Assembly: GCA_037042915.1 (NCBI GenBank)
Contig: CM073195.1
Location: 3,658,001 to 3,722,000 of the forward strand
Length of the DNA stretch: 64,000 bases
Source of the DNA: Auricularia sp. M13
Lineage: Eukaryota; Basidiomycota; Agaricomycetes; Auriculariales; Auriculariaceae
Direction: 5' to 3'
In this document: in pieces, positions 11,627-63,200 of the stretch
How positions within the stretch are numbered: position 1 is the first letter of the stretch
Layout: every line of letters starts with the position of its first letter
The notes under the pieces: model-generated
Told to the model about the DNA's origin: nothing
The model's database searches: none
The model's input: the letters and a program-made list of their open reading frames with translations, nothing else
Translations under genes and position numbers: made by a program

Positions 11627-11900
11627 CACAAGTGCCGCTGTATTGAACGAGTCGTGTGAGCTGGAAATTGAGTTGCTTGATGTGTAAGTCGCCAAATGAG
11701 TGGACGAGGAGAACCTCTGAGACGGAATTATCCGTATATTAGGGGTCCCTTTGCGTTGCGGCCCGATTGACGGAATCCGAGTGTCAAATTGCTAACCAAT
11801 ACGAAGACTAGCCTTATGCGAAGGCGGCCGAGAAATGGGCCGCACGTCTGAAGGTTGACACCGAGCAGCGGCTGTTGGAAAAATCTTTGCTAAAAAAGAC
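11627..11900. other. spacer holding the displaced tRNA-Ser Pol III terminator
   Basis: No gene is seen. On the minus strand a T6 run (11897-11892) begins three bases after the tRNA 3' end that terminates the repeat array at 11901. This is the spacing expected for the original RNA polymerase III terminator of the tRNA-Ser gene whose body now lies at 21071-20990. Confidence 0.6.
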
Positions 11901-13285
11901 CGACAACTGCAGGATTCGAACCTGCGCGCCGTAAAATGAACGCAGGTTCGAATGTGCATTTGTGCGAAAGTGGCCACATGCGCTTTAACCACTGCTCCGT
12001 CGCATGCGATGACGTCATTTAGCACAGCCTCGGTGGTTGCATCCGACCAGCATCCGGCCTCTCGGTGGTTTCCGCCTGCCTCTCTTCCTCTTACCATCAC
12101 CTTTGCACGACCCCCGCACTGTGCGCCTGCTCCGCTCTTGCCCTACCCCTGCCGCTGTTGTTCACGCCCTATGCCCACATGCCGTCGCTCGCTACTCGCG
12201 GCCCGCAATATCGCCGAGCTCAGGCGATGAAGGCTCTCGTCGCGCACGCCGTCTGCGTCACGGTCTGGCTCGCAGCCTGACTCCATTGCCCGCGCGGCTC
12301 GTGTGTCCTGCCCACATTCGACCGCTTGCTCTCCCCGCGTTCGGCATAGTCGCCGAGCTCCCCGCATCGCTACTCGTCCAATTACGGCGGCGCTGTCCGC
12401 AGACCCGGCCCCGTCCCTGTTGCGGTCTTCGTCGGGTCCCTCCTCCCGCGCTGTTTCATTTCGCCGTCCCGTGGCCCTCGCACCTCGTCCGGGCGCCCCA
12501 AACTCCTTGCGCCCGGCCCCGCGGCCCTTTCGTCGGCGCGTCCAAGCGGTCTCTCCGCTCGGCGAGTATCTCGGTCTCTTCCTAGGAGAAGGGTAATATG
12601 ACAGGATGTTTCTGGTTTGGTTAGGCTCTATTTATCCCGGGTTTCCTGTCTCGCCGACGACGCCCCGGCGGTCTCTTTCGGCCTGATCTGTGGCGCCCGC
12701 GTGACAACCGGTCGGTGGCGCAATTGGTCCGCGGGGCCCCTCGGCCTTGCTTCCGTAGTATATATATCTGGGCCGTCGCCCCTCTTGTACCTTAGGTTTG
12801 GTCTGGTCTATCATACCGCTTATCCGCGCCTCCCTCTCCCCACTCATCCCTTCCCCTCGGGCGTCGTCTCGGAGAGTGATATAGCAGTCACCGTGACAGT
12901 CCCTTTCCACCAGTTCGGGCTTACACTAGCGCGTCGTTCCTCCCTATCACGTCATACTGGGGCAGCTTCCCCACTATTACGTCATTCATTGCGTTCACTT
13001 GTGCCCCGCCGTCGATGCGCGTCGCCCTAGGTTAGAGAGTAAATGAGGACAGTGAAATGGACCGTACCAAAATGAGTGTCTCCGCGGGCCCCCGGTTGGC
13101 CGCACGCACGGGGGTTAATAAATCATATGTTACTTTAATCCAGCCCCTGTCTTTGGCATGTAACAATCAGGGGTTCTCCCAACGAGCTTTGTAGTCAATG
13201 TACAATGTCCATGTATTTAAGCACATCCAAATGTAAGTAAGTAAACCAACTATCAAACAAAACATGATGAGAAGGTCATATTATT
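11901..13285 (-). repeat. array unit 1 (long class)
   Basis: Outermost copy, at the end next to the displaced terminator. The tRNA-like junction is at 11901-12008; the long-class core is about 12415-12912 and contains a TATATATA stretch near 12760. The inverted arms at 11914-11926 and 11941-11953 match 13 of 13. Confidence 0.9.
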
Positions 13286-14470
13286 CGACAACTGCAGGAT
13301 TCGAACCTGCGCGCCGTAAAATGAACGCAGGTTCGAATGTGCATTTGTGCGAAAGTGGCCACATGCGCTTTAACCACTGCTCCGTCGCATGGGATGACGT
13401 CATTTAGCACAGCCTCGGTGGTTGCATCCGACCAGCATCCGGCCTCTCGGTGGTTTCCGCCTGCCTCTCTTCCTCTTACCATCACCTTTGCACGACCCCC
13501 GCACTGTGCGCCTGCTCCGCTCTTGCCCTACCCCTGCCGCTGTTGTTCACGCCCTATGCCCACATGCCGTCGCTCGCTACTCGCGGCCCGCAATATCGCC
13601 GAGCTCAGGCGATGAAGGCTCTCGTCGCGCACGCCGTCTGCGTCACGGTCTGGCTCGCAGCCTGACTCCATTGCCCGCGCGGCTCGTGTGTCCTGCCCAC
13701 ATTCGACCGCTTGCTCTCCCCGCATCGCTACTCGTCCAATTACGGCGGCGCTGTCCGCAGACCCGGCCCCGTCCCTTTCCGCTCGGCTTTCGGCCCGTCC
13801 CCCTCCTATGCCCGTCATTGCCGCTCCACAACCCCAACGTGTTCGCCGCCCCCACCACCGCCGCTGCCGATGTCTGCGGACCCAGGCGACTGTCGCCGAC
13901 GTCGTCGCAGGACGAGTCGTTGCCGGCCGTATGGGCGCTGCTCAGCGCGTGCGGCACCCAGCAGCCGCCATCCGTTTTCCGCCATTGTCCATCGCGATTC
14001 CCCTGTCACCCCGGCGTAGCTGTTGCCCACCGCGGCGCCATCAGTTCCCGACTCATCCGCTCCTGTTACATGCCTCGCTCTTGACGATTTTTGACCAGTT
14101 CGGGCTTACACTAGCGCGTCGTTCCTCCCTATCACGTCATACTGGGGCAGCTTCCCCACTATTACGTCATTCATTGCGTTCACTTGTGCCCCGCCGTCGA
14201 TGTGCGTCGCCCTAGGTTAGAGAGTAAATGACGACAGTGAAATGGACCGTACCAAAATGAGTGTCTCCGCGGGCCCCCGGTTGGCCGCACGCACGGGGGT
14301 TAATAAATCATATGTTACTTTAATCCAGCCCCTGTCTTTGGCATGTAACAATCAGGGGTTCTCCCAACGAGCTTTGTAGTCAATGTACAATGTCCATGTA
14401 TTTAAGCACATCCAAATGTAAGTAAGTAAACAAACTATCAAACAAAACATGATGAGAAGGTCATATTATT
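13286..14470 (-). repeat. array unit 2 (short class)
   Basis: Short-class core about 13785-14095, without the 27-bp insertion seen near 12340 in long units. A private variant is gggatgacg near 13390. Confidence 0.9.
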
Positions 14471-15654
14471 CGACAACTGCAGGATTCGAACCTGCGCGCC
14501 GTAAAATGAACGCAGGTTCGAATGTGCGTTTGTGCGAAAGTGGCCACATGCGCTTTAACCACTGCTCCGTCGCATGCGATGACGTCATCTAGCACAGCCT
14601 CGGTGGTTGCATCCGACCAGCATCCGGCCTCTCGGTGGTTTCCGCCTGCCTCTCTTCCTCTTACCATCACCTTTGCACGACCCCCGCACTGTGCGCCTGC
14701 TCCGCTCTTGCCCTACCCCTGCCGCTGTTGTTCACGCCCTATGCCCACATGCCGTCGCTCGCTACTCGCGGCCCGCAATATCGCCGAGCTCAGGCGATGA
14801 AGGCTCTCGTCGCGCACGCCGTCTGCGTCACGGTCTGGCTCGCAGCCTGACTCCATTGCCCGCGCGGCTCGTGTGTCCTGCCCACATTCGACCGCTTGCT
14901 CTCCCCGCATCGCTACTCGTCCCATTACGGCGGCGCTGTCCGCAGACCCGGCCCCGTCCCTTTCCGCTCGGCTTTCGGCCCGTCCCCTCCTATGCCCGTC
15001 ATTGCCGCTCCACAACCCCAACGTGTTCGCCGCCCCCACCACCGCCGCTGCCGATGTCTGCGGACCCAGGCGACTGTCGCCGACGTCGTCGCAGGACGAG
15101 TCGTTGCCGGCCGTATGGGCGCTGCTCAGCGCGTGCGGCACCCAGCAGCCGCCATCCGTTTTCCGCCATTGTCCATCCCGATTCCCCTGCCGCCCCGGCG
15201 TAGCTGTTGCCCACCGCGGCGCCATCAGTTCCCGACTCGTCCGCTCCTGTTACATGCCTCGCTCTTGACGATTTTTGACCAGTTCGGGCTTACACTAGCG
15301 CGTCGTTCCTCCCTATCACGTCATACTGGGGCAGCTTCCCCACTATTACGTCATTCATTGCGTTCACTTGTGCCCCGCCGTCGATGTGCGTCGCCCTAGG
15401 TTAGAGAGTAAATGACGACAGTGAAATGGACCGTACCAAAATGAGTGTCTCCGCGGGCCCCCGGTTGGCCGCACGCACGGGGGTTAATAAATCATATGTT
15501 ACTTTAATCCAGCCCCTGTCTTTGGCATGTAACAATCAGGGGTTCTCCCAACGAGCTTTGTAGTCAATGTACAATGTCCATGTATTTAAGCACATCCAAA
15601 TGTAAGTAAGTAAACAAACTATCAAACAAAACATGATGAGAAGGTCATATTATT
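14471..15654 (-). repeat. array unit 3 (short class)
   Basis: Shares the diagnostic variants gcgtttgtgcg and catctagc with unit 7, although four long units lie between them. Confidence 0.9.
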
Positions 15655-17039
15655 CGACAACTGCAGGATTCGAACCTGCGCGCCGTAAAATGAACGCAGG
15701 TTCGAATGTGCATTTGTGCGAAAGTGGCCACATGCGCTTTAACCACTGCTCCGTCGCATGCGATGACGTCATTTAGCACAGCCTCGGTGGTTGCATCCGA
15801 CCAGCATCCGGCCTCTCGGTGGTTTCCGCCTGCCTCTCTTCCTCTTACCATCACCTTTGCACGACCCCCGCACTGTGCGCCTGCTCCGCTCTTGCCCTAC
15901 CCCTGCCGCTGTTGTTCACGCCCTATGCCCACATGCCGTCGCTCGCTACTCGCGGCCCGCAATATCGCCGAGCTCAGGCGATGAAGGCTCTCGTCGCGCA
16001 CGCCGTCTGCGTCACGGTCTGGCTCGCAGCCTGACTCCATTGCCCGCGCGGCTCGTGTGTCCTGCCCACATTCGACCGCTTGCTCTCCCCGCGTTCGGCA
16101 TAGTCGCCGAGCTCCCCGCATCGCTACTCGTCCAATTACGGCGGCGCTGTCCGCAGACCCGGCCCCGTCCCTGTTGCGGTCTTCGTCGGGTCCCTCCTCC
16201 CGCGCTGTTTCATTTCGCCGTCCCGTGGCCCTCGCACCTCGTCCGGGCGCCCCAAACTCCTTGCGCCCGGCCCCGCGGCCCTTTCGTCGGCGCGTCCAAG
16301 CGGTCTCTCCGCTCGGCGAGTATCTCGGTCTCTTCCTAGGAGAAGGGTAATATGACAGGATGTTTCTGGTTTGGTTAGGCTCTATTTATCCCGGGTTTCC
16401 TGTCTCGCCTGACGACGCCCCGGCGGTCTCTTTCGGCCTGATCTGTGGCGCCCGCGTGACAACCGGTCGGTGGCGCAATTGGTCCGCGGGGCCCCTCGGC
16501 CTTGCTTCCGTAGTATATATATCTGGGCCGTCGCCCCTCTTGTACCTTAGGTTTGGTCTGGTCTATCATACCGCTTATCCGCGCCTCCCTCTCCCCACTC
16601 ATCCCTTCCCCTCGGGCGTCGTCTCGGAGAGTGATATAGCAGTCACCGTGACAGTCCCTTTCCACCAGTTCGGGCTTACACTAGCGCGTCGTTCCTCCCT
16701 ATCACGTCATACTGGGGCAGCTTCCCCACTATTACGTCATTCATTGCGTTCACTTGTGCCCCGCCGTCGATGCGCGTCGCCCTAGGTTAGAGAGTAAATG
16801 AGGACAGTGAAATGGACCGTACCAAAATGAGTGTCTCCGCGGGCCCCCGGTTGGCCGCACGCACGGGGTTAATAAATCATATGTTACTTTAATCCAGCCC
16901 CTGTCTTTGGCATGTAACAATCAGGGGTTCTCCCAACGAGCTTTGTAGTCAATGTACAATGTCCATGTATTTAAGCACATCCAAATGTAAGTAAGTAAAC
17001 CAACTATCAAACAAAACATGATGAGAAGGTCATATTATT
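15655..17039 (-). repeat. array unit 4 (long class)
   Basis: Nearly identical to unit 1; differs by an extra t (cgcctgacgac near 16407) and one g fewer in the run at about 16865. Confidence 0.9.
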
Positions 17040-18423
17040 CGACAACTGCAGGATTCGAACCTGCACGCCGTAAAATGAACGCAGGTTCGAATGTGCATTT
17101 GTGCGAAAGTGGCCACATGCGCTTTAACCACTGCTCCGTCGCATGCGATGACGTCATTTAGCACAGCCTCGGTGGTTGCATCCGACCAGCATCCGGCCTC
17201 TCGGTGGTTTCCGCCTGCCTCTCTTCCTCTTACCATCACCTTTGCACGACCCCCGCACTGTGCGCCTGCTCCGCTCTTGCCCTACCCCTGCCGCTGTTGT
17301 TCACGCCCTATGCCCACATGCCGTCGCTCGCTACTCGCGGCCCGCAATATCGCCGAGCTCAGGCGATGAAGGCTCTCGTCGCGCACGCCGTCTGCGTCAC
17401 GGTCTGGCTCGCAGCCTGACTCCATTGCCCGCGCGGCTCGTGTGTCCTGCCCACATTCGACCGCTTGCTCTCCCCGCGTTCGGCATAGTCGCCGAGCTCC
17501 CCGCATCGCTACTCGTCCAATTACGGCGGCGCTGTCCGCAGACCCGGCCCCGTCCCTGTTGCGGTCTTCGTCGGGTCCCTCCTCCCGCGCTGTTTCATTT
17601 CGCCGTCCCGTGGCCCTCGCACCTCGTCCGGGCGCCCCAAACTCCTTGCGCCCGGCCCCGCGGCCCTTTCGTCGGCGCGTCCAAGCGGTCTCTCCGCTCG
17701 GCGAGTATCTCGGTCTCTTCCTAGGAGAAGGGTAATATGACAGGATGTTTCTGGTTTGGTTAGGCTCTATTTATCCCGGGTTTCCTGTCTCGCCGACGAC
17801 GCCCGGCGGTCTCTTTCGGCCTGATCTGTGGCGCCCGCGTGACAACCGGTCGGTGGCGCAATTGGTCCGCGGGGCCCCTCGGCCTTGCTTCCGTAGTATA
17901 TATATCTGGGCCGTCGCCCCTCTTGTACCTTAGGTTTGGTCTGGTCTATCATACCGCTTATCCGCGCCTCCCTCTCCCCACTCATCCCTTCCCCTCGGGC
18001 GTCGTCTCGGAGAGTGATATAGCAGTCACCGTGACAGTCCCTTTCCACCAGTTCGGGCTTACACTAGCGCGTCGTTCCTCCCTATCACGTCATACTGGGG
18101 CAGCTTCCCCACTATTACGTCATTCATTGCGTTCACTTGTGCCCCGCCGTCGATGCGCGTCGCCCTAGGTTAGAGAGTAAATGAGGACAGTGAAATGGAC
18201 CGTACCAAAATGAGTGTCTCCGCGGGCCCCCGGTTGGCCGCACGCACGGGGGTTAATAAATCATATGTTACTTTAATCCAGCCCCTGTCTTTGGCATGTA
18301 ACAATCAGGGGTTCTCCCAACGAGCTTTGTAGTCAATGTACAATGTCCATGTATTTAAGCACATCCAAATGTAAGTAAGTAAACCAACTATCAAACAAAA
18401 CATGATGAGAAGGTCATATTATT
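17040..18423 (-). repeat. array unit 5 (long class)
   Basis: Carries cctgcacgcc in the T-arm copy, so the left inverted arm matches 12 of 13; shared only with unit 6. It also lacks one c near 17801. Confidence 0.9.
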
Positions 18424-19807
18424 CGACAACTGCAGGATTCGAACCTGCACGCCGTAAAATGAACGCAGGTTCGAATGTGCATTTGTGCGAAAGTGGCCAC
18501 ATGCGCTTTAACCACTGCTCCGTCGCATGCGATGACGTCATTTAGCACAGCCTCGGTGGTTGCATCCGACCAGCATCCGGCCTCTCGGTGGTTTCCGCCT
18601 GCCTCTCTTCCTCTTACCATCACCTTTGCACGACCCCCGCACTGTGCGCCTGCTCCGCTCTTGCCCTACCCCTGCCGCTGTTGTTCACGCCCTATGCCCA
18701 CATGCCGTCGCTCGCTACTCGCGGCCCCGCAATATCGCCGAGCTCAGGCGATGAAGGCTCTCGTCGCGCACGCCGTCTGCGTCACGGTCTGGCTCGCAGC
18801 CTGACTCCATTGCCCGCGCGGCTCGTGTGTCCTGCCCACATTCGACCGCTTGCTCTCCCCGCGTTCGGCATAGTCGCCGAGCTCCCCGCATCGCTACTCG
18901 TCCATTACGGCGGCGCTGTCCGCAGACCCGGCCCCGTCCCTGTTGCGGTCTTCGTCGGGTCCCTCCTCCCGCGCTGTTTCATTTCGCCGTCCCGTGGCCC
19001 TCGCACCTCGTCCGGGCGCCCCAAACTCCTTGCGCCCGGCCCCGCGGCCCTTTCGTCAGCGCGTCCAAGCGGTCTCTCCGCTCGGCGAGTATCTCGGTCT
19101 CTTCCTAGGAGAAGGGTAATATGACAGGATGTTTCTGGTTTGGTTAGGCTCTATTTATCCCGGGTTTCCTGTCTCGCCGACGACGCCCGGCGGTCTCTTT
19201 CGGCCTGATCTGTGGCGCCCGCGTGACAACCGGTCGGTGGCGCAATTGGTCCGCGGGGCCCCTCGGCCTTGCTTCCGTAGTATATATATCTGGGCCGTCG
19301 CCCCTCTTGTACCTTAGGTTTGGTCTGGTCTATCATACCGCTTATCCGCGCCTCCCTCTCCCCACTCATCCCTTCCCCTCGGGCGTCGTCTCGGAGAGTG
19401 ATATAGCAGTCACCGTGACAGTCCCTTTCCACCAGTTCGGGCTTACACTAGCGCGTCGTTCCTCCCTATCACGTCATACTGGGGCAGCTTCCCCACTATT
19501 ACGTCATTCATTGCGTTCACTTGTGCCCCGCCGTCGATGCGCGTCGCCCTAGGTTAGAGAGTAAATGAGGACAGTGAAATGGACCGTACCAAAATGAGTG
19601 TCTCCGCGGGCCCCCGGTTGGCCGCACGCACGGGGGTTAATAAATCATATGTTACTTTAATCCAGCCCCTGTCTTTGGCATGTAACAATCAGGGGTTCTC
19701 CCAACGAGCTTTGTAGTCAATGTACAATGTCCATGTATTTAAGCACATCCAAATGTAAGTAAGTAAACAAACTATCAAACAAAACATGATGAGAAGGTCA
19801 TATTATT
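18424..19807 (-). repeat. array unit 6 (long class)
   Basis: Sister of unit 5 (same cctgcacgcc variant). Private changes are an extra c near 18727, a missing a near 18903, and tcagcgcg near 19057. These frame-breaking indels argue against coding. Confidence 0.9.
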
Positions 19808-20989
19808 CGACAACTGCAGGATTCGAACCTGCGCGCCGTAAAATGAACGCAGGTTCGAATGTGCGTTTGTGCGAAAGTGGCCACATGCGCTTTAACCACT
19901 GCTCCGTCGCATGCGATGACGTCATCTAGCACAGCCTCGGTGGTTGCATCCGACCAGCATCCGGCCTCTCGGTGGTTTCCGCCTGCCTCTCTTCCTCTTA
20001 CCATCACCTTTGCACGACCCCCGCACTGTGCGCCTGCTCCGCTCTTGCCCTACCCCTGCCGCTGTTGTTCACGCCCTATGCCCACATGCCGTCGCTCGCT
20101 ACTCGCGGCCCGCAATATCGCCGAGCTCAGGCGATGAAGGCTCTCGTCGCGCACGCCGTCTGCGTCACGGTCTGGCTCGCAGCCTGACTCCATTGCCCGC
20201 GCGGCTCGTGTGTCCTGCCCACATTCGACCGCTTGCTCTCCCCGCATCGCTACTCGTCCATTACGGCGGCGCTGTCCGCAGACCCGGCCCCGTCCCTTTC
20301 CGCTCGGCTTTCGGCCCGTCCCCCCTATGCCCGTCATTGCCGCTCCACAACCCCAACGTGTTCGCCGCCCCCACTACCGCCGCTGCCGATGTCTGCGGAC
20401 CCAGGCGACTGTCGCCGACGTCGTCGCAGGACGAGTCGTTGCCGGCCGTATGGGCGCTGCTCAGCGCGTGCGACACCCAGCAGCCGCCATCCGTTTTCCG
20501 CCATTGTCCATCCCGATTCCCCTGTCGCCCCGGCGTAGCTGTTGCCCACCGCGGCGCCATCAGTTCCCGACTCGTCCGCTCCTGTTACATGCCTCGCTCT
20601 TGACGATTTTTGACCAGTTCGGGCTTACACTAGCGTGTCGTTCCTCCCTATCACGTCATACTGGGGCAGCTTCCCCACTATTACGTCATTCATTGCGTTC
20701 ACTTGTGCCCCGCCGTCGATGTGCGTCGCCCTAGGTTAGAGAGTAAATGAGGACAGTGAAATGGACCGTACCAAAATGAGTGTCTCCGCGGGCCTCCCGT
20801 TGGACGCACGCACGGGGATTAATAAATCATATGTTACTTTAATCCAGCCCCTGTCTTTGGCATGTAACAATCAGGGGTTCTCCCAACGAGCTTTGTAGTC
20901 AATGTACAATGTCCATGTATTTAAGCACATCCAAATGTAAGTAAGTAAACAAACTATCAAACAAAATATGATGAGAAGGTCATATTATT
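19808..20989 (-). repeat. array unit 7 (short class), abutting the intact tRNA
   Basis: Short core, sharing unit 3 variants. Its right end is the most diverged (ggcctcccgttggacgcac near 20791), as expected for the founder-side copy next to the real tRNA. Confidence 0.9.
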
Positions 20990-21071
20990 CGACAACTGCA
21001 GGATTCGAACCTGCGCGCCCAGAGGGCACCACCTTAGCAGGGTGGCACGTTAACCACTCCGCCAAGTTGTC
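20990..21071 (-). tRNA. tRNA-Ser (anticodon GCT)
   Basis: Read on the minus strand, the acceptor stem GACAACT pairs fully with AGTTGTC (discriminator G). The anticodon arm is CCACC-CTGCTAA-GGTGG with anticodon GCT, a long variable arm GCCC-TCT-GGGC identifies the serine class, and the T arm is GCAGG-TTCGAAT-CCTGC. There is no intron. The last 30 nt recur at each of seven tandem junctions downstream. Immediately downstream there is now only a weak TTTT about 30 nt away; the original T6 terminator appears to be at 11897-11892. Confidence 0.95.
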
Positions 21072-59824: not shown

Positions 59825-60205
59825 ATGAGCGGTTCTCGTTACCGACGTCGTGGAGCACCCCGCCGTTTCAACACGGCCTCGTCTGGCTACCAACTCGCCC
59901 TAACGACCCTTTGTGTCGAGTTAGAGTCGCTGAAGAGCCTTGTCGCCTCTCTGAGCACTCAGAATTCCGCACTTATGTCTGAGCTGCGCCAGGCCTACTT
60001 GGATCTGACTGTGGCAATGAAGCAAATGAAAGGGCTTGCCCACAGTGCGTTTCTTCTGGCTTCAAACGCTGCCGAGGCTTCCTTGACCAGGAGTCCGCTG
60101 GAGGCCCCAATTTGTCGCTTAACGCTCTGCGCGATGAGCAGGCAATCGCATTCTACGCCGGGTTCCCAGCTTCGTCGCAATGCGAGCTGGATCCGGTCGA
60201 CATAG
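59825..60205 (+). pseudogene. LINE ORF1-like N-terminal region
   Basis: Starts MSGSRYRRRGAPRRFNTASS and has a heptad pattern (LESLKSLVASLSTQNSALMS). The frame switches near 60105 to the frame that continues into the endonuclease region (NALRDEQAIAFYAGFPAS), so it was probably the start of one long reading frame. Confidence 0.55.
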
Positions 60206-63200
60206 CTCTTGAAGCTACTCATCGTGAGGTCGACAAGCCAGAGTCGACGCAGCCCGCGCTGTTTTCGACGTTGAAGCTACCGCAGCCGATGCCCCGACGA
60301 GATGCTTCGTCGCTTGCACTCGAAGACGGCTTGCCGTCACGACCATCTGTCGCTGAATCTGTATCAGCACAGACTTGTGACGGAAGTGTTACGCACGAGT
60401 GCTTGCCGTCCTCTGACTTTGTGACGCCTGCTTCGCATGCCACGACGCTTGACGATTTTGCTGACAAGTCTATTAGGCAGAGCCCTGATACGCTTGACGC
60501 TACCCGGCACCACTACCACCCATATCCGCTCGTTCCGTCCTCTTTCACACGACCGCGTCCTTACCTCCATCCTCCAACACCCCACCCGCCTACGCTCCTT
60601 TCCTTCCCATGCCGACTTCTTCTCCTCGCTGTCTTTCTTTTTTCGCTCATATCTCCCGTTCTTGCCCACTCTCCGTTCTCACACCCAGCCTCCACTTTGT
60701 CCTTTTATTCCGTCAACGCCAACGGCATGCGAGAGCCGCTGAAAGTCCAGTGCATCAGGAACGTGATTCAGGCGCGTCAGCCTCACGTTTTTGTCATCTG
60801 CGAGACGAAGTCAGGCTCGGCTGTGGCGTCGTCGCTGCCCACGTCTGACTATGTGATCTATGAAGAGGTTGGCGTGCGAACGACCGGTCATCATCTCTTC
60901 AAATGGGGTGTGGTCGTGGGTGTTCGAAAGGACATTCAACACGACGCACCACTGCCCAACCCGCCGCCGTTGCGAGGTCGCGCCCTGGCGATAGACCTGA
61001 CCCTCCGCACCACTCATAATACGGGTTTCCGACACCGCTTCATGGGCGTATATGCGCCCTGGCAGGCTTGGGTGGATGACGAAAATGCGGGTCAGGTAAA
61101 TGAGCATGATGCCCAGGAGACCCATGCTTTCTGGTCTGCGATCACACAGTTTGCGTGCTCTGCGCCAGATGGCTCTTGGTCGATGACCGGAGATTTCAAT
61201 GCAACTCTGACTCGACAAGAGTCCAGAAGTGCTCGTGCTCAGGGCAGTAACCGTTACTCGCGGTTCCTTGAAGATGTGCAGGGTCAAGACCTGTGGTTGC
61301 GCAACGAGCAGCGCTCCGTGCACCATGAGTGGACTTGCAAGTCGCGCAAGGACAATCTTGGGGCGAGCATCATAGATCGCTCGGCCGTGTCCTCAGTTGG
61401 TGTAGCGGATGGTTGGATTGACGTAGCCTCGCGCGCATCCGACTTCATTCCCTACACTGATCACCGCGCCGTCGTCACGACCATTGTGCCTGTTCCCCCT
61501 CGTGTCACTGATGGCCACGCTCTCTTAGACTCTGTGCGCCTGTTTGTCCCGCCGCCGTGTTTGCGATATCCGAGCAAAAGGAGAAGCACCGCCGATGACT
61601 TCGAGCAGACTATGACCGGCGGCTTCTAAATAGCCCATATGCTCACATTGTCGATTACACGCAAATCGCGGGCGACGTGGAATGGACACGGATCTATGAA
61701 GCAGTCGGTGTCATGCTCCGCGAAGCCGGTGCTCGCGTTCGGCTGGAACAGACCATCATCGTCCGCTCGTTCCGCTTTTAAGCCGCCGCGCGAGGTCTCT
61801 AAGATATACCTAGAGATCCGGCGCATTGGGGGCGCTGTTCGCCTCCTTTGCGACCCTCTTACGCGTGAAGTCGTCGATGAATCGCGTTTGTATCTCGCGA
61901 ATATCCAGCGGTGTTTTCCTGACGCCTCATCGGCCCGTCAGGCATTGAGGGACCGGCGAAAGGAACTGTACAAGAAGGCATTTGCCTTGCTTGTTGAAGA
62001 TGCAACGCGTCGCGCGCATGAGCTCGACAAGAAACGCGTCATCGCGTCCCTTGCGGGTGGCTCAACGAAGCGACTGCTCAAAGCCTCAACTTTCGTAGGG
62101 TTACCCACAGTCGTAGTCGACCCGCGGGATCCTAACAAGCTCATCTCTGAGCCTGCAGCGGTTAATGCCGCAACTTGTGATTATTTTTCACAGTTGTATG
62201 AGCGCAAAGACCAGCCGGTGCTTCCTAAACCATGGATGACATGTCCCTCGGTTGCTGAAGTCCGCGCTCGCGTAGAAGCACGTCCGTTCGTGTGGCCGGT
62301 AGCTGCAACGGTTGAATCGTTCCGTGCAATGTTACGCAAGGGCAATGCTCGTCCGAGCCCAAGCATTGATGGCTGGGAGAAATGGTGCGTTAAGGCACTA
62401 TCGGACACAGGCCTCAGAATTATTGTGGCACTCCACAATTACGAGGTCATGCACTCACGATGCCCGGATGCTGTCAAAGTCTGCCGTCTATCAACTTTGC
62501 ACAAGAAGGGTATTCGTGCAGACCTTAAGAACATGCGTGGTCTTGGCATTTCTGCATTCTTGCACAACTCTCCTGCGACATGGCTCAACTTCCACCTCGT
62601 ACCGTATGCGACACAGATGGGCTTGATACCCGAGACTCAGGTTGCAATGCAACAAGGCATTCAATCACGCGATTTGCTAAGTTTTCTCTCGCGCTGAAAT
62701 GTTGGGCTCACCGTCACTCGCAGACCGTTTACATTCTCAAACGTGATCAAATGAAAGGATTTGATTACTTGTCGCCCGAGGGCTTCTATGATGCTGTCCG
62801 TGCTTACGGTCTTCCGCAGTCCATAATCGACCTGGACAAGGCAATGCAGTCGGACAATATCTGCTATGTCCGTACTGCGTACGCTCACGCGGGACCGATT
62901 TGCATCAACGGTGTGGCAAAACAAGGTGCACCACTCTCACCTATCAAATGCGGGCTCACTACGAGTTTAGGTCACCGATACATCAATGACTTTTGCAAGT
63001 CACTGAATGGTGCGCGTCGCATTCAAACTTGTGCGCGCGCACGAGGAATATTTCATACACTGTATGACAAGCTGAGTCTTCCCGTCTCAATGGTTGAGTA
63101 CATGGATGACTCGCTGATTATGGCTTGGACGCCTGCAGCACTCTGCAGCATTGCCCTTGAGCTTGAACGCTTTCAATTTGTTTACGGCTGGCTAACGCAA

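What the first reader, a model, noticed from the sequence alone, without database searches (positions are those of the whole stretch)
11901..21071. A tandem array of elements integrated at the 3' end of a tRNA-Ser gene, with the terminator displaced 9 kb
Seen: the intact tRNA-Ser(GCT) sits at one end (20990-21071). All seven units downstream begin and end with the last 30 nt of the tRNA. At the far end (11901) the tRNA 3' sequence is followed within three bases by a T6 Pol III terminator, whereas next to the intact tRNA there is only a weak TTTT. Inference: one element inserted at the tRNA 3' end, duplicated at least 30 bp of it, and amplified head to tail. This is the layout of tRNA-targeting site-specific integration known from bacterial islands, and I know of no described fungal counterpart with this form.
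Basis: partly seen in the sequence, partly recalled or inferred. Interest (0 to 1): 0.88.

Follow-up and report, generated by a model that had tools for sequence, protein, structure and literature searches.

The report
Repeats spliced onto tRNA gene ends
In a fungal-looking genome, small mobile-looking DNA repeats sit joined to the tail ends of some tRNA genes, each leaving a spare copy of that tail on its far side, much as bacterial mobile islands do, which hints at a little-known way for DNA to insert into nuclear genomes without breaking the gene it hits.

Summary
Seven head-to-tail units (11901-20989, minus strand) follow the intact tRNA-Ser(GCT). Each ends in the tRNA's last 30 nt (exact in 5 of 7, one mismatch in 2 of 7). 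A T6 run starts 4 nt after the last copy; the intact gene's first T4 run is at +24. The units are of two kinds, with shared ends and unlike middles. Relatives of the element lie behind a tRNA-Ser(CGA) gene and behind the second identical tRNA-Ser(GCT) gene; each is followed by a copy (weathered in the second case) of that tRNA's own 3' end and a T run. Short elements not detectably related to these lie at 4 of 5 tRNA-Phe genes with the same layout. Three tRNA-Ser(CGA) genes form a mosaic that breaks within about 6 nt at the start of the T stem. I read this as site-specific integration into tRNA 3' ends with replacement of the tail, tyrosine-recombinase-like. The recombinase is not identified. 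One old copy (C9) has no tRNA beside it. No relative's empty allele could be tested. Target-duplicating transposition or gene conversion remain possible.

The parts
20990..21071 (-). intact tRNA-Ser(GCT), the target gene
   Evidence: ARAGORN; Rfam RF00005 62.1 bits
19808..20989 (-). unit U1, kind S, 1182 bp, exact tRNA 3' copy at 19808-19837
18424..19807 (-). unit U2, kind L, 1384 bp, tRNA 3' copy (29/30) at 18424-18453
17040..18423 (-). unit U3, kind L, 1384 bp, tRNA 3' copy (29/30) at 17040-17069
15655..17039 (-). unit U4, kind L, 1385 bp, exact tRNA 3' copy at 15655-15684
14471..15654 (-). unit U5, kind S, 1184 bp, exact tRNA 3' copy at 14471-14500
13286..14470 (-). unit U6, kind S, 1185 bp, exact tRNA 3' copy at 13286-13315
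11901..13285 (-). unit U7, kind L, 1385 bp; 0 mismatches and 2 gap columns against U4
11901..11930 (-). displaced tRNA-Ser 3' end at the far end (attR-like)
   Evidence: exact 30-nt match
11892..11897 (-). T6 run after the displaced end, read as the original Pol III terminator
   Evidence: function inferred
11931..12006 (-). element right end of U7: inverted copy of the T-arm (11941-11953) that can pair with the displaced T-arm, preceded by a tRNA D-arm-like stretch
   Evidence: pattern; fold (z -3.17, 4 of 200 shuffles fold as well); (D-arm resemblance moderate to tRNA-Arg, weak to tRNA-Ser)
20955..20989 (-). element left end next to the intact tRNA; first T4 run at +24

Best explanation
The array consists of apparently non-coding, non-autonomous elements that integrate site-specifically into the 3' part of tRNA genes. 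Proposed mechanism: a circular element carries a copy of the last ~30 nt of a tRNA next to an inverted T-arm copy (attP-like). A recombinase, most likely a tyrosine recombinase supplied in trans, exchanges it with a tRNA gene at the start of the T stem. The element's copy becomes the new 3' end of the working tRNA, usually with an element-borne T run behind it. The original 3' end and its terminator are pushed to the far side. Every internal junction is again a target, so further circles of either kind can join, or unequal exchange can amplify the units, giving the head-to-tail array. Shown: layout, target-matched 3' ends at tRNA-Ser and tRNA-Phe genes, T runs behind displaced ends, mosaic breakpoint. 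Inferred: the circle, the recombinase type, the direction of exchange, the order of events.
For: 1) Same layout at other tRNAs with the local 3' end: L019 (26/28), L051 (26/28), L042 and L043 (23/28 each), L002 (20/28; 3 of 1000 mononucleotide shuffles reach it). 2) L019's right 148 nt match the array at 94%, but its tRNA-derived part is that of tRNA-Ser(CGA). L002's element scores above all 500 first-order shuffles against L019 and against the right and left parts of U5, the left one narrowly (49.0 against a maximum of 46.0). 3) Displaced ends have a T4+ run starting at +4 to +10 in 7 of 7 listed by hand (about 4-5 independent); background 2.2%. 4) Mosaic: L081 differs from L076 (no element seen) at 1 position before 71, then at 71 and 81, and has unrelated flank; it differs from L019 at 8 positions up to 65, at none after, and shares 58 bp of element left end at 97%. 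5) In L019 the displaced T stem equals that of L076 while the working one differs by a compensated pair. 6) An inverted T-arm motif precedes the displaced T-arm in array, L019, L042, L043 and L051; the pattern, drawn from these loci, has 13 genome matches, 11 of them these, against 1 for the reversed pattern. 7) Phe element A: 4 genome matches, all at tRNA-Phe genes.
Against: No recombinase is linked to any copy: one DUF3435 gene and 14 PF00589-matching frames lie elsewhere; the two examined have no tRNA within the 3.6 and 1.5 kb held. One old, nearly full-length copy (L020) has no tRNA sequence at its ends. L081 and L044 have no displaced end in the roughly 8 kb read downstream. The family found is small (array, L019, L081, L002, L020, one ~60-bp fragment), compatible with spread by gene conversion; a genome search with L002's element found only itself, so its kinship rests. 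The gap between the inverted arms (about 18 nt in the Ser elements) is longer than the usual tyrosine-recombinase spacer (6-8 bp, recalled). No empty allele seen.
Confidence: 0.5

Rival explanations
1. tRNA-targeted retroposition or transposition that leaves a long (~28-30 bp) target-site duplication; both tRNA 3' copies come from the target, and the array grew by unequal crossing over.
For: Working tRNA end and the last displaced end are identical in the array. In L019 a base left of the T stem (T of GGT) is the same in working and displaced copies and differs from L076 and L081. The window holds a LINE-like endonuclease frame at 60112-61629, so retrotransposons are probably present.
Against: No A-rich tail or short 3' repeat was seen by eye at the unit ends. 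In L019 the working copy, not the non-functional one, departs from paralog L076, at two paired positions; the Phe loci show the same direction, judged only against a recalled canonical T-arm. L081 shares L019's changed tail and element end, but its 5' part is like L076.
Confidence: 0.2
2. Tandem tRNA gene duplication followed by decay of the second gene's 5' half, with gene conversion between tRNA paralogs spreading the 3' ends and flanks.
For: A D-arm-like stretch precedes the displaced end in the Ser elements: with the units' own letters 4 (U5) and 5 (U7) of 1000 shuffles reach the score against tRNA-Arg(TCT), 55 and 43 of 1000 against tRNA-Ser. The L081/L019 mosaic of about 22+58 nt could be a conversion tract. 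L042 and L043 lie in a segmental duplication: 1.5 kb downstream is 98% identical.
Against: In the array the exact match stops at a sharp edge 30 nt from the end, not as decay would leave it. The Phe element shows no significant match to the tRNA-Phe 5' half (187 of 1000 shuffles; 230 and 209). L019 and the array share 118 nt of non-tRNA right end but each has its own tRNA's tail.
Confidence: 0.15
3. A plain tandem satellite that arose once beside a tRNA by replication error; the resemblance to integration is accidental.
For: Tandem arrays by unequal exchange are common (general knowledge); L units differ from each other by 0-3 mismatches, as in recent amplification.
Against: Relatives of the unit and other elements with the same layout at other tRNA genes.
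Confidence: 0.05

Closest known systems
Prokaryotic islands, phages and plasmids integrated at tRNA 3' ends by tyrosine recombinases (e.g. archaeal tyrosine recombinase review PMC8371274: search listing and start of abstract only; detail recalled)
   Same: tRNA 3' end is the site; element restores the tRNA and leaves a direct repeat of the 3' end at the far side; fixed orientation; tandem accretion
   Different: nuclear, fungal-looking genome; no integrase found in the element; elements of ~0.1-1.4 kb; Pol III terminator also displaced
Crypton tyrosine-recombinase transposons of fungi (PMC3212892, passages seen)
   Same: fungal tyrosine-recombinase elements proposed to move as excised circles
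   Different: the passages give 4-6 bp terminal direct repeats, and the term search found no 'tRNA' in the text; here the repeat is 28-30 nt of a tRNA and no recombinase is inside
Starship giant transposons (e.g. PMC12289983, search listing and start of abstract only)
   Same: tyrosine-recombinase elements of filamentous fungi
   Different: giant, cargo-bearing, Pezizomycotina; the 14 papers listed hold no 'tRNA gene'
Dada DNA transposons of fish (PMC8869645, passages seen)
   Same: insert inside tRNA genes of several isotypes; target sequence sometimes replaced
   Different: 6-7 bp target duplications; the sites described in the passages seen are not the 3' end with restoration
tRNA-gene-targeting retrotransposons: Dictyostelium elements (PMC5006619) and yeast Ty3 (PMC8632968); search listings and starts of abstracts only
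   Same: target tRNA genes as safe sites
   Different: insert beside the gene (Ty3 in a narrow window upstream) and do not duplicate or replace the tRNA 3' end (partly recalled)
Polinton-like viruses with tyrosine recombinases in cryptophytes (PMC12220804, passages seen)
   Same: eukaryotic elements with a tyrosine recombinase thought to act on circles
   Different: 14-40 kb; the authors scanned 1 kb up- and downstream of insertions and found no tRNA genes

Membership tests
tRNA-integrating tyrosine-recombinase element | direct repeat of the target tRNA 3' end at both element ends | tested here: met
   array, L019, L002 (weathered), L042, L043, L051 (L041 damaged); not met at L020, and no far copy found at L081 and L044
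tRNA-integrating tyrosine-recombinase element | working tRNA 3' end supplied by the element | tested here: inconclusive
   L019, L081 and L076 mosaic fits; gene conversion not excluded; array copies are uninformative
tRNA-integrating tyrosine-recombinase element | element encodes, or is tied to, a tyrosine recombinase | tested here: not met
   8 of the 38 frames listed over the array were scanned: no Pfam match at E up to 1; DUF3435 and PF00589 frames lie elsewhere. So 'works like', not 'is a member'
tRNA-integrating tyrosine-recombinase element | empty site with intact tRNA and its terminator | not testable with these tools
   no relatives held (note); only a paralog without a visible element, L076, could be compared
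Crypton | short (4-6 bp) terminal direct repeats and an encoded YR | tested here: not met
   30-nt repeats; no Pfam match in the 8 unit frames scanned
Starship | DUF3435 captain gene inside, large cargo (recalled) | tested here: not met
   units are 1.2-1.4 kb, no match in 8 frames; the one DUF3435 gene found is on the same contig about 3.04 Mb away
Dada | 6-7 bp target-site duplication | tested here: not met
   28-30 nt repeats
SINE | Pol III head, 3' tail, dispersed insertion (recalled) | tested here: not met
   no tail seen; copies found lie mainly at tRNA 3' ends, L020 and the fragment L021 excepted

The most novel reading that the evidence does not exclude
Nuclear genomes of fungi host a class of minimal site-specific integrating elements that use tRNA genes as attachment sites, swap the tRNA tail for their own and stack into tandem arrays, driven in trans by a fungal tyrosine recombinase: a eukaryotic counterpart of bacterial tRNA islands, with the tRNA B box and its inverted copy as the att core.
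Probability: 0.4. Interest if true: 0.85.

Novelty: new variant of a known kind. Interest (0 to 1): 0.68.

Why it matters
Integration at tRNA 3' ends with repair of the gene is a hallmark of prokaryotic mobile DNA. A nuclear version would show that the same safe-harbour solution arose, or was carried over, in eukaryotes. It would make the recombinase searchable by its attachment sites, would explain odd 3' halves and displaced terminators of some fungal tRNA genes, and could provide a site-specific integration tool for fungi. It also warns that tRNA evolution can proceed by tail replacement.

Tried and rejected
Considered and set aside: coding function of the units (frames overlap and shift between copies; 8 of 38 listed frames scanned, no Pfam match at E up to 1); a hidden second tRNA in the array (at E up to 5 the only Rfam tRNA match is the gene itself; 7 snoR35 and 5 mir-10 matches all lie below gathering score); a viral partner (an exact 21-mer of the right end has 0 matches in viral contigs; one 21-mer only); an autonomous copy in the genome sharing the right end (8 matches, 7 array and L019); linkage to the DUF3435 gene or the best PF00589 frame (both frames match their families, no tRNA in 3.6 kb and 1.5 kb; the other 13 PF00589 frames were not read). 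Two of the 13 pattern matches (L099, L100) were read and dropped: they look to me like an intron-bearing tRNA and a simple repeat. Common ancestry of Phe element A and the Ser element was not supported (140 and 118 of 500 shuffles; 59 and 72 of 500 with exact unit letters). Element B (L044/L051) is weakly supported: 70 nt at 77%, of which 20 nt are tRNA; L044's downstream stretch has no other genome match.

Literature: searches (20 of 263 papers listed; 1 of 1; 15 of 101; 4 of 4; 1 of 1; 14 of 14; 13 of 13) listed no title or abstract start that describes this layout in fungi; the library holds only open-licence PMC papers, and I saw no full paper.

A fungal, probably basidiomycete, host is my inference from gene content and GC and was not tested.
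Full report
Observation. The window lies at C3:3658001-3722000 of an unnamed 52-Mb, 14-contig genome. The tRNA-Ser(GCT) at 20990-21071 (minus) is the only tRNA found in the window. Reading the minus strand, seven units follow it directly. The 30-nt tRNA end is exact at 5 of 7 unit ends and has one mismatch at 2 of 7. Six of the seven copies are followed by the same 12 nt as the real tRNA; the seventh by GTC and T6. The real tRNA has its first T4 run at +24; 47 of 55 surveyed tRNA genes have one within 20 nt, so the weak terminator is unusual but not unique.

Unit anatomy. Two kinds exist, in the order S L L L S S L counted from the tRNA. U5 (S) and U7 (L) differ at 3 sites in the left 377 columns and at 3 sites plus one 27-column gap in the right 518; the middles match in 164 of 316 paired columns of a forced alignment, that is, not meaningfully. 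L units differ from each other by 0-3 mismatches, S units by 8-15. U1 carries private substitutions in the left part, where U5 and U6 (S) resemble the L units. This points to exchange between units and recent amplification. No unit holds a convincing gene. The tRNA-sense strand is 58.9% purine over the array; 174 overlapping 1200-nt windows outside have a mean of 50.0% and a maximum of 58.6%.

Same element elsewhere. Genome searches with a unit and with ends of its relatives give L019 (C1), L081 (C5, left 58 bp only), L020 (C9) and a ~60-bp fragment L021 (C7) besides the array. L019 lies behind a tRNA-Ser(CGA) gene (ARAGORN with introns); 253 nt separate the tRNA from a copy of that tRNA's own 3' end, then a T5 run. 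The second, identical tRNA-Ser(GCT) gene (L002, C2) is followed by ~360 nt related to both ends of the array element (above all of 500 shuffles in three comparisons, the left one narrowly) and by a weathered 3' end (20 of 28) with a T4 run. The genome search with that stretch finds only itself, so this kinship is remote. L020 is an old copy (66-75% in its longer matches) whose homology starts at the left end of the unit, but no tRNA sequence above background was found in its 3.6 kb. That copy counts against a strict tRNA rule; it may be a secondary site or a locus whose tRNA is gone.

Other elements, same layout. Among 55 tRNA genes scored by the genome search (a lower bound; 63 of 1056 candidates were scored), 6 carry their own 3' end again within up to 1.5 kb at 20 or more of 28 nt: the array, L019, L002 and three tRNA-Phe genes (L042, L043, L051). 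A fourth tRNA-Phe (L041) has the same element with a damaged end, missed by the scan (16 of 28) and recognised by eye and alignment. The ~125-nt element A has 4 genome matches, at these four genes. L042 and L043 are one segmental duplication, so independent events are fewer than loci. In L051 a further stretch, perhaps shared with L044, lies between the tRNA and element A, with a short tRNA-Phe tail remnant between them; this looks like successive insertion at one site, on weak evidence. Three tRNA-Ser(AGA) genes, the tRNA-Ser(CGA) gene L076, and L082, which ARAGORN also labels Ser(GCT) but whose sequence differs, show no displaced end in the stretch held. Element A and the Ser element are not detectably related, yet both have an inverted T-arm motif before the displaced T-arm. 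The pattern search found 13 places: 7 in the array, L019, L042, L043 and L051, and 2 dropped after reading; the reversed pattern gave 1. Since the pattern was drawn from these loci, this shows only that the motif is rare elsewhere.

How the tail got there. Three tRNA-Ser(CGA) genes allow a test. L076 shows no element within the 1.4 kb held. L081 equals L076 up to position 70 except one base (position 40, in the intron region), then differs at the paired T-stem positions 71 and 81 and has unrelated flank. From position 66 on, L081 equals L019, and the first 58 bp behind the tRNA are 97% alike. The break therefore lies between positions 65 and 71. In L019 the displaced tail has the L076-type T stem and the working tRNA the changed, compensated one. 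This is expected if the element brings its own tail. A gene-conversion tract could give the L081 mosaic too, and one base left of the T stem in L019 is shared by both copies, which a plain target duplication explains more simply. I therefore hold recombinase-type integration at 0.5 and target-duplicating transposition at 0.2.

Enzyme. The genome search found one DUF3435 gene (86 bits again) and 14 frames matching PF00589 at E up to 1, one over the cut-off; the frame read for the best of these has what I recall as a typical recombinase motif. None is known to be linked to the elements. The class of enzyme is inference.

Known relatives. What it works like: prokaryotic tRNA-site islands. Membership cannot be claimed, because no integrase was found in or tied to the element. 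Cryptons, Starships, Dada and SINEs each fail a defining feature tested here; the Dictyostelium and Ty3 systems were compared from abstract starts and recall only. The paper searches named in Tried and rejected listed no description of this layout in fungi.

Verdict. Real, seen at several loci, and stranger than an ordinary satellite; mechanism plausible but unproven for lack of relatives and of a recombinase.

Noticed in passing
L019 about 785-1070 (C1, upstream of the tRNA-Ser(CGA)): A ~280-bp stretch with long, nearly perfect inverted ends (MITE-like, by eye); Rfam gives a sub-threshold MIR8622 match over 823-1034.
   Followed up: no
window 60112-62697: A frame with an endonuclease/exonuclease/phosphatase domain (PF03372) followed by a frame without a Pfam match: probably a non-LTR retrotransposon.
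   Followed up: partly
L074 (C2:3946668-3946761): tRNA-Lys gene followed by T7 and then a second short T-arm-like stretch (13 nt identical) within 25 nt downstream.
   Followed up: no
L044 (C4:917113) versus L042 and L043: L044 and L042 are 92% identical over 338 nt ending at the tRNA, tRNA included, but L044's downstream sequence differs from the base after the tRNA on: a joint at the tRNA 3' end.
   Followed up: partly
C12:346431 and C9:568635 (L063, L060): Two tRNA-Gln(CTG) genes with 1451 identical nt (20 of them tRNA) running downstream: a recent duplication or an assembly copy.
   Followed up: no
window 11901-20989: Strong strand asymmetry over the array: tRNA-sense strand 59% purine against 50% on average outside; the old relative L020 shows 58%, L019 56%, L002 54%.
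   Followed up: partly
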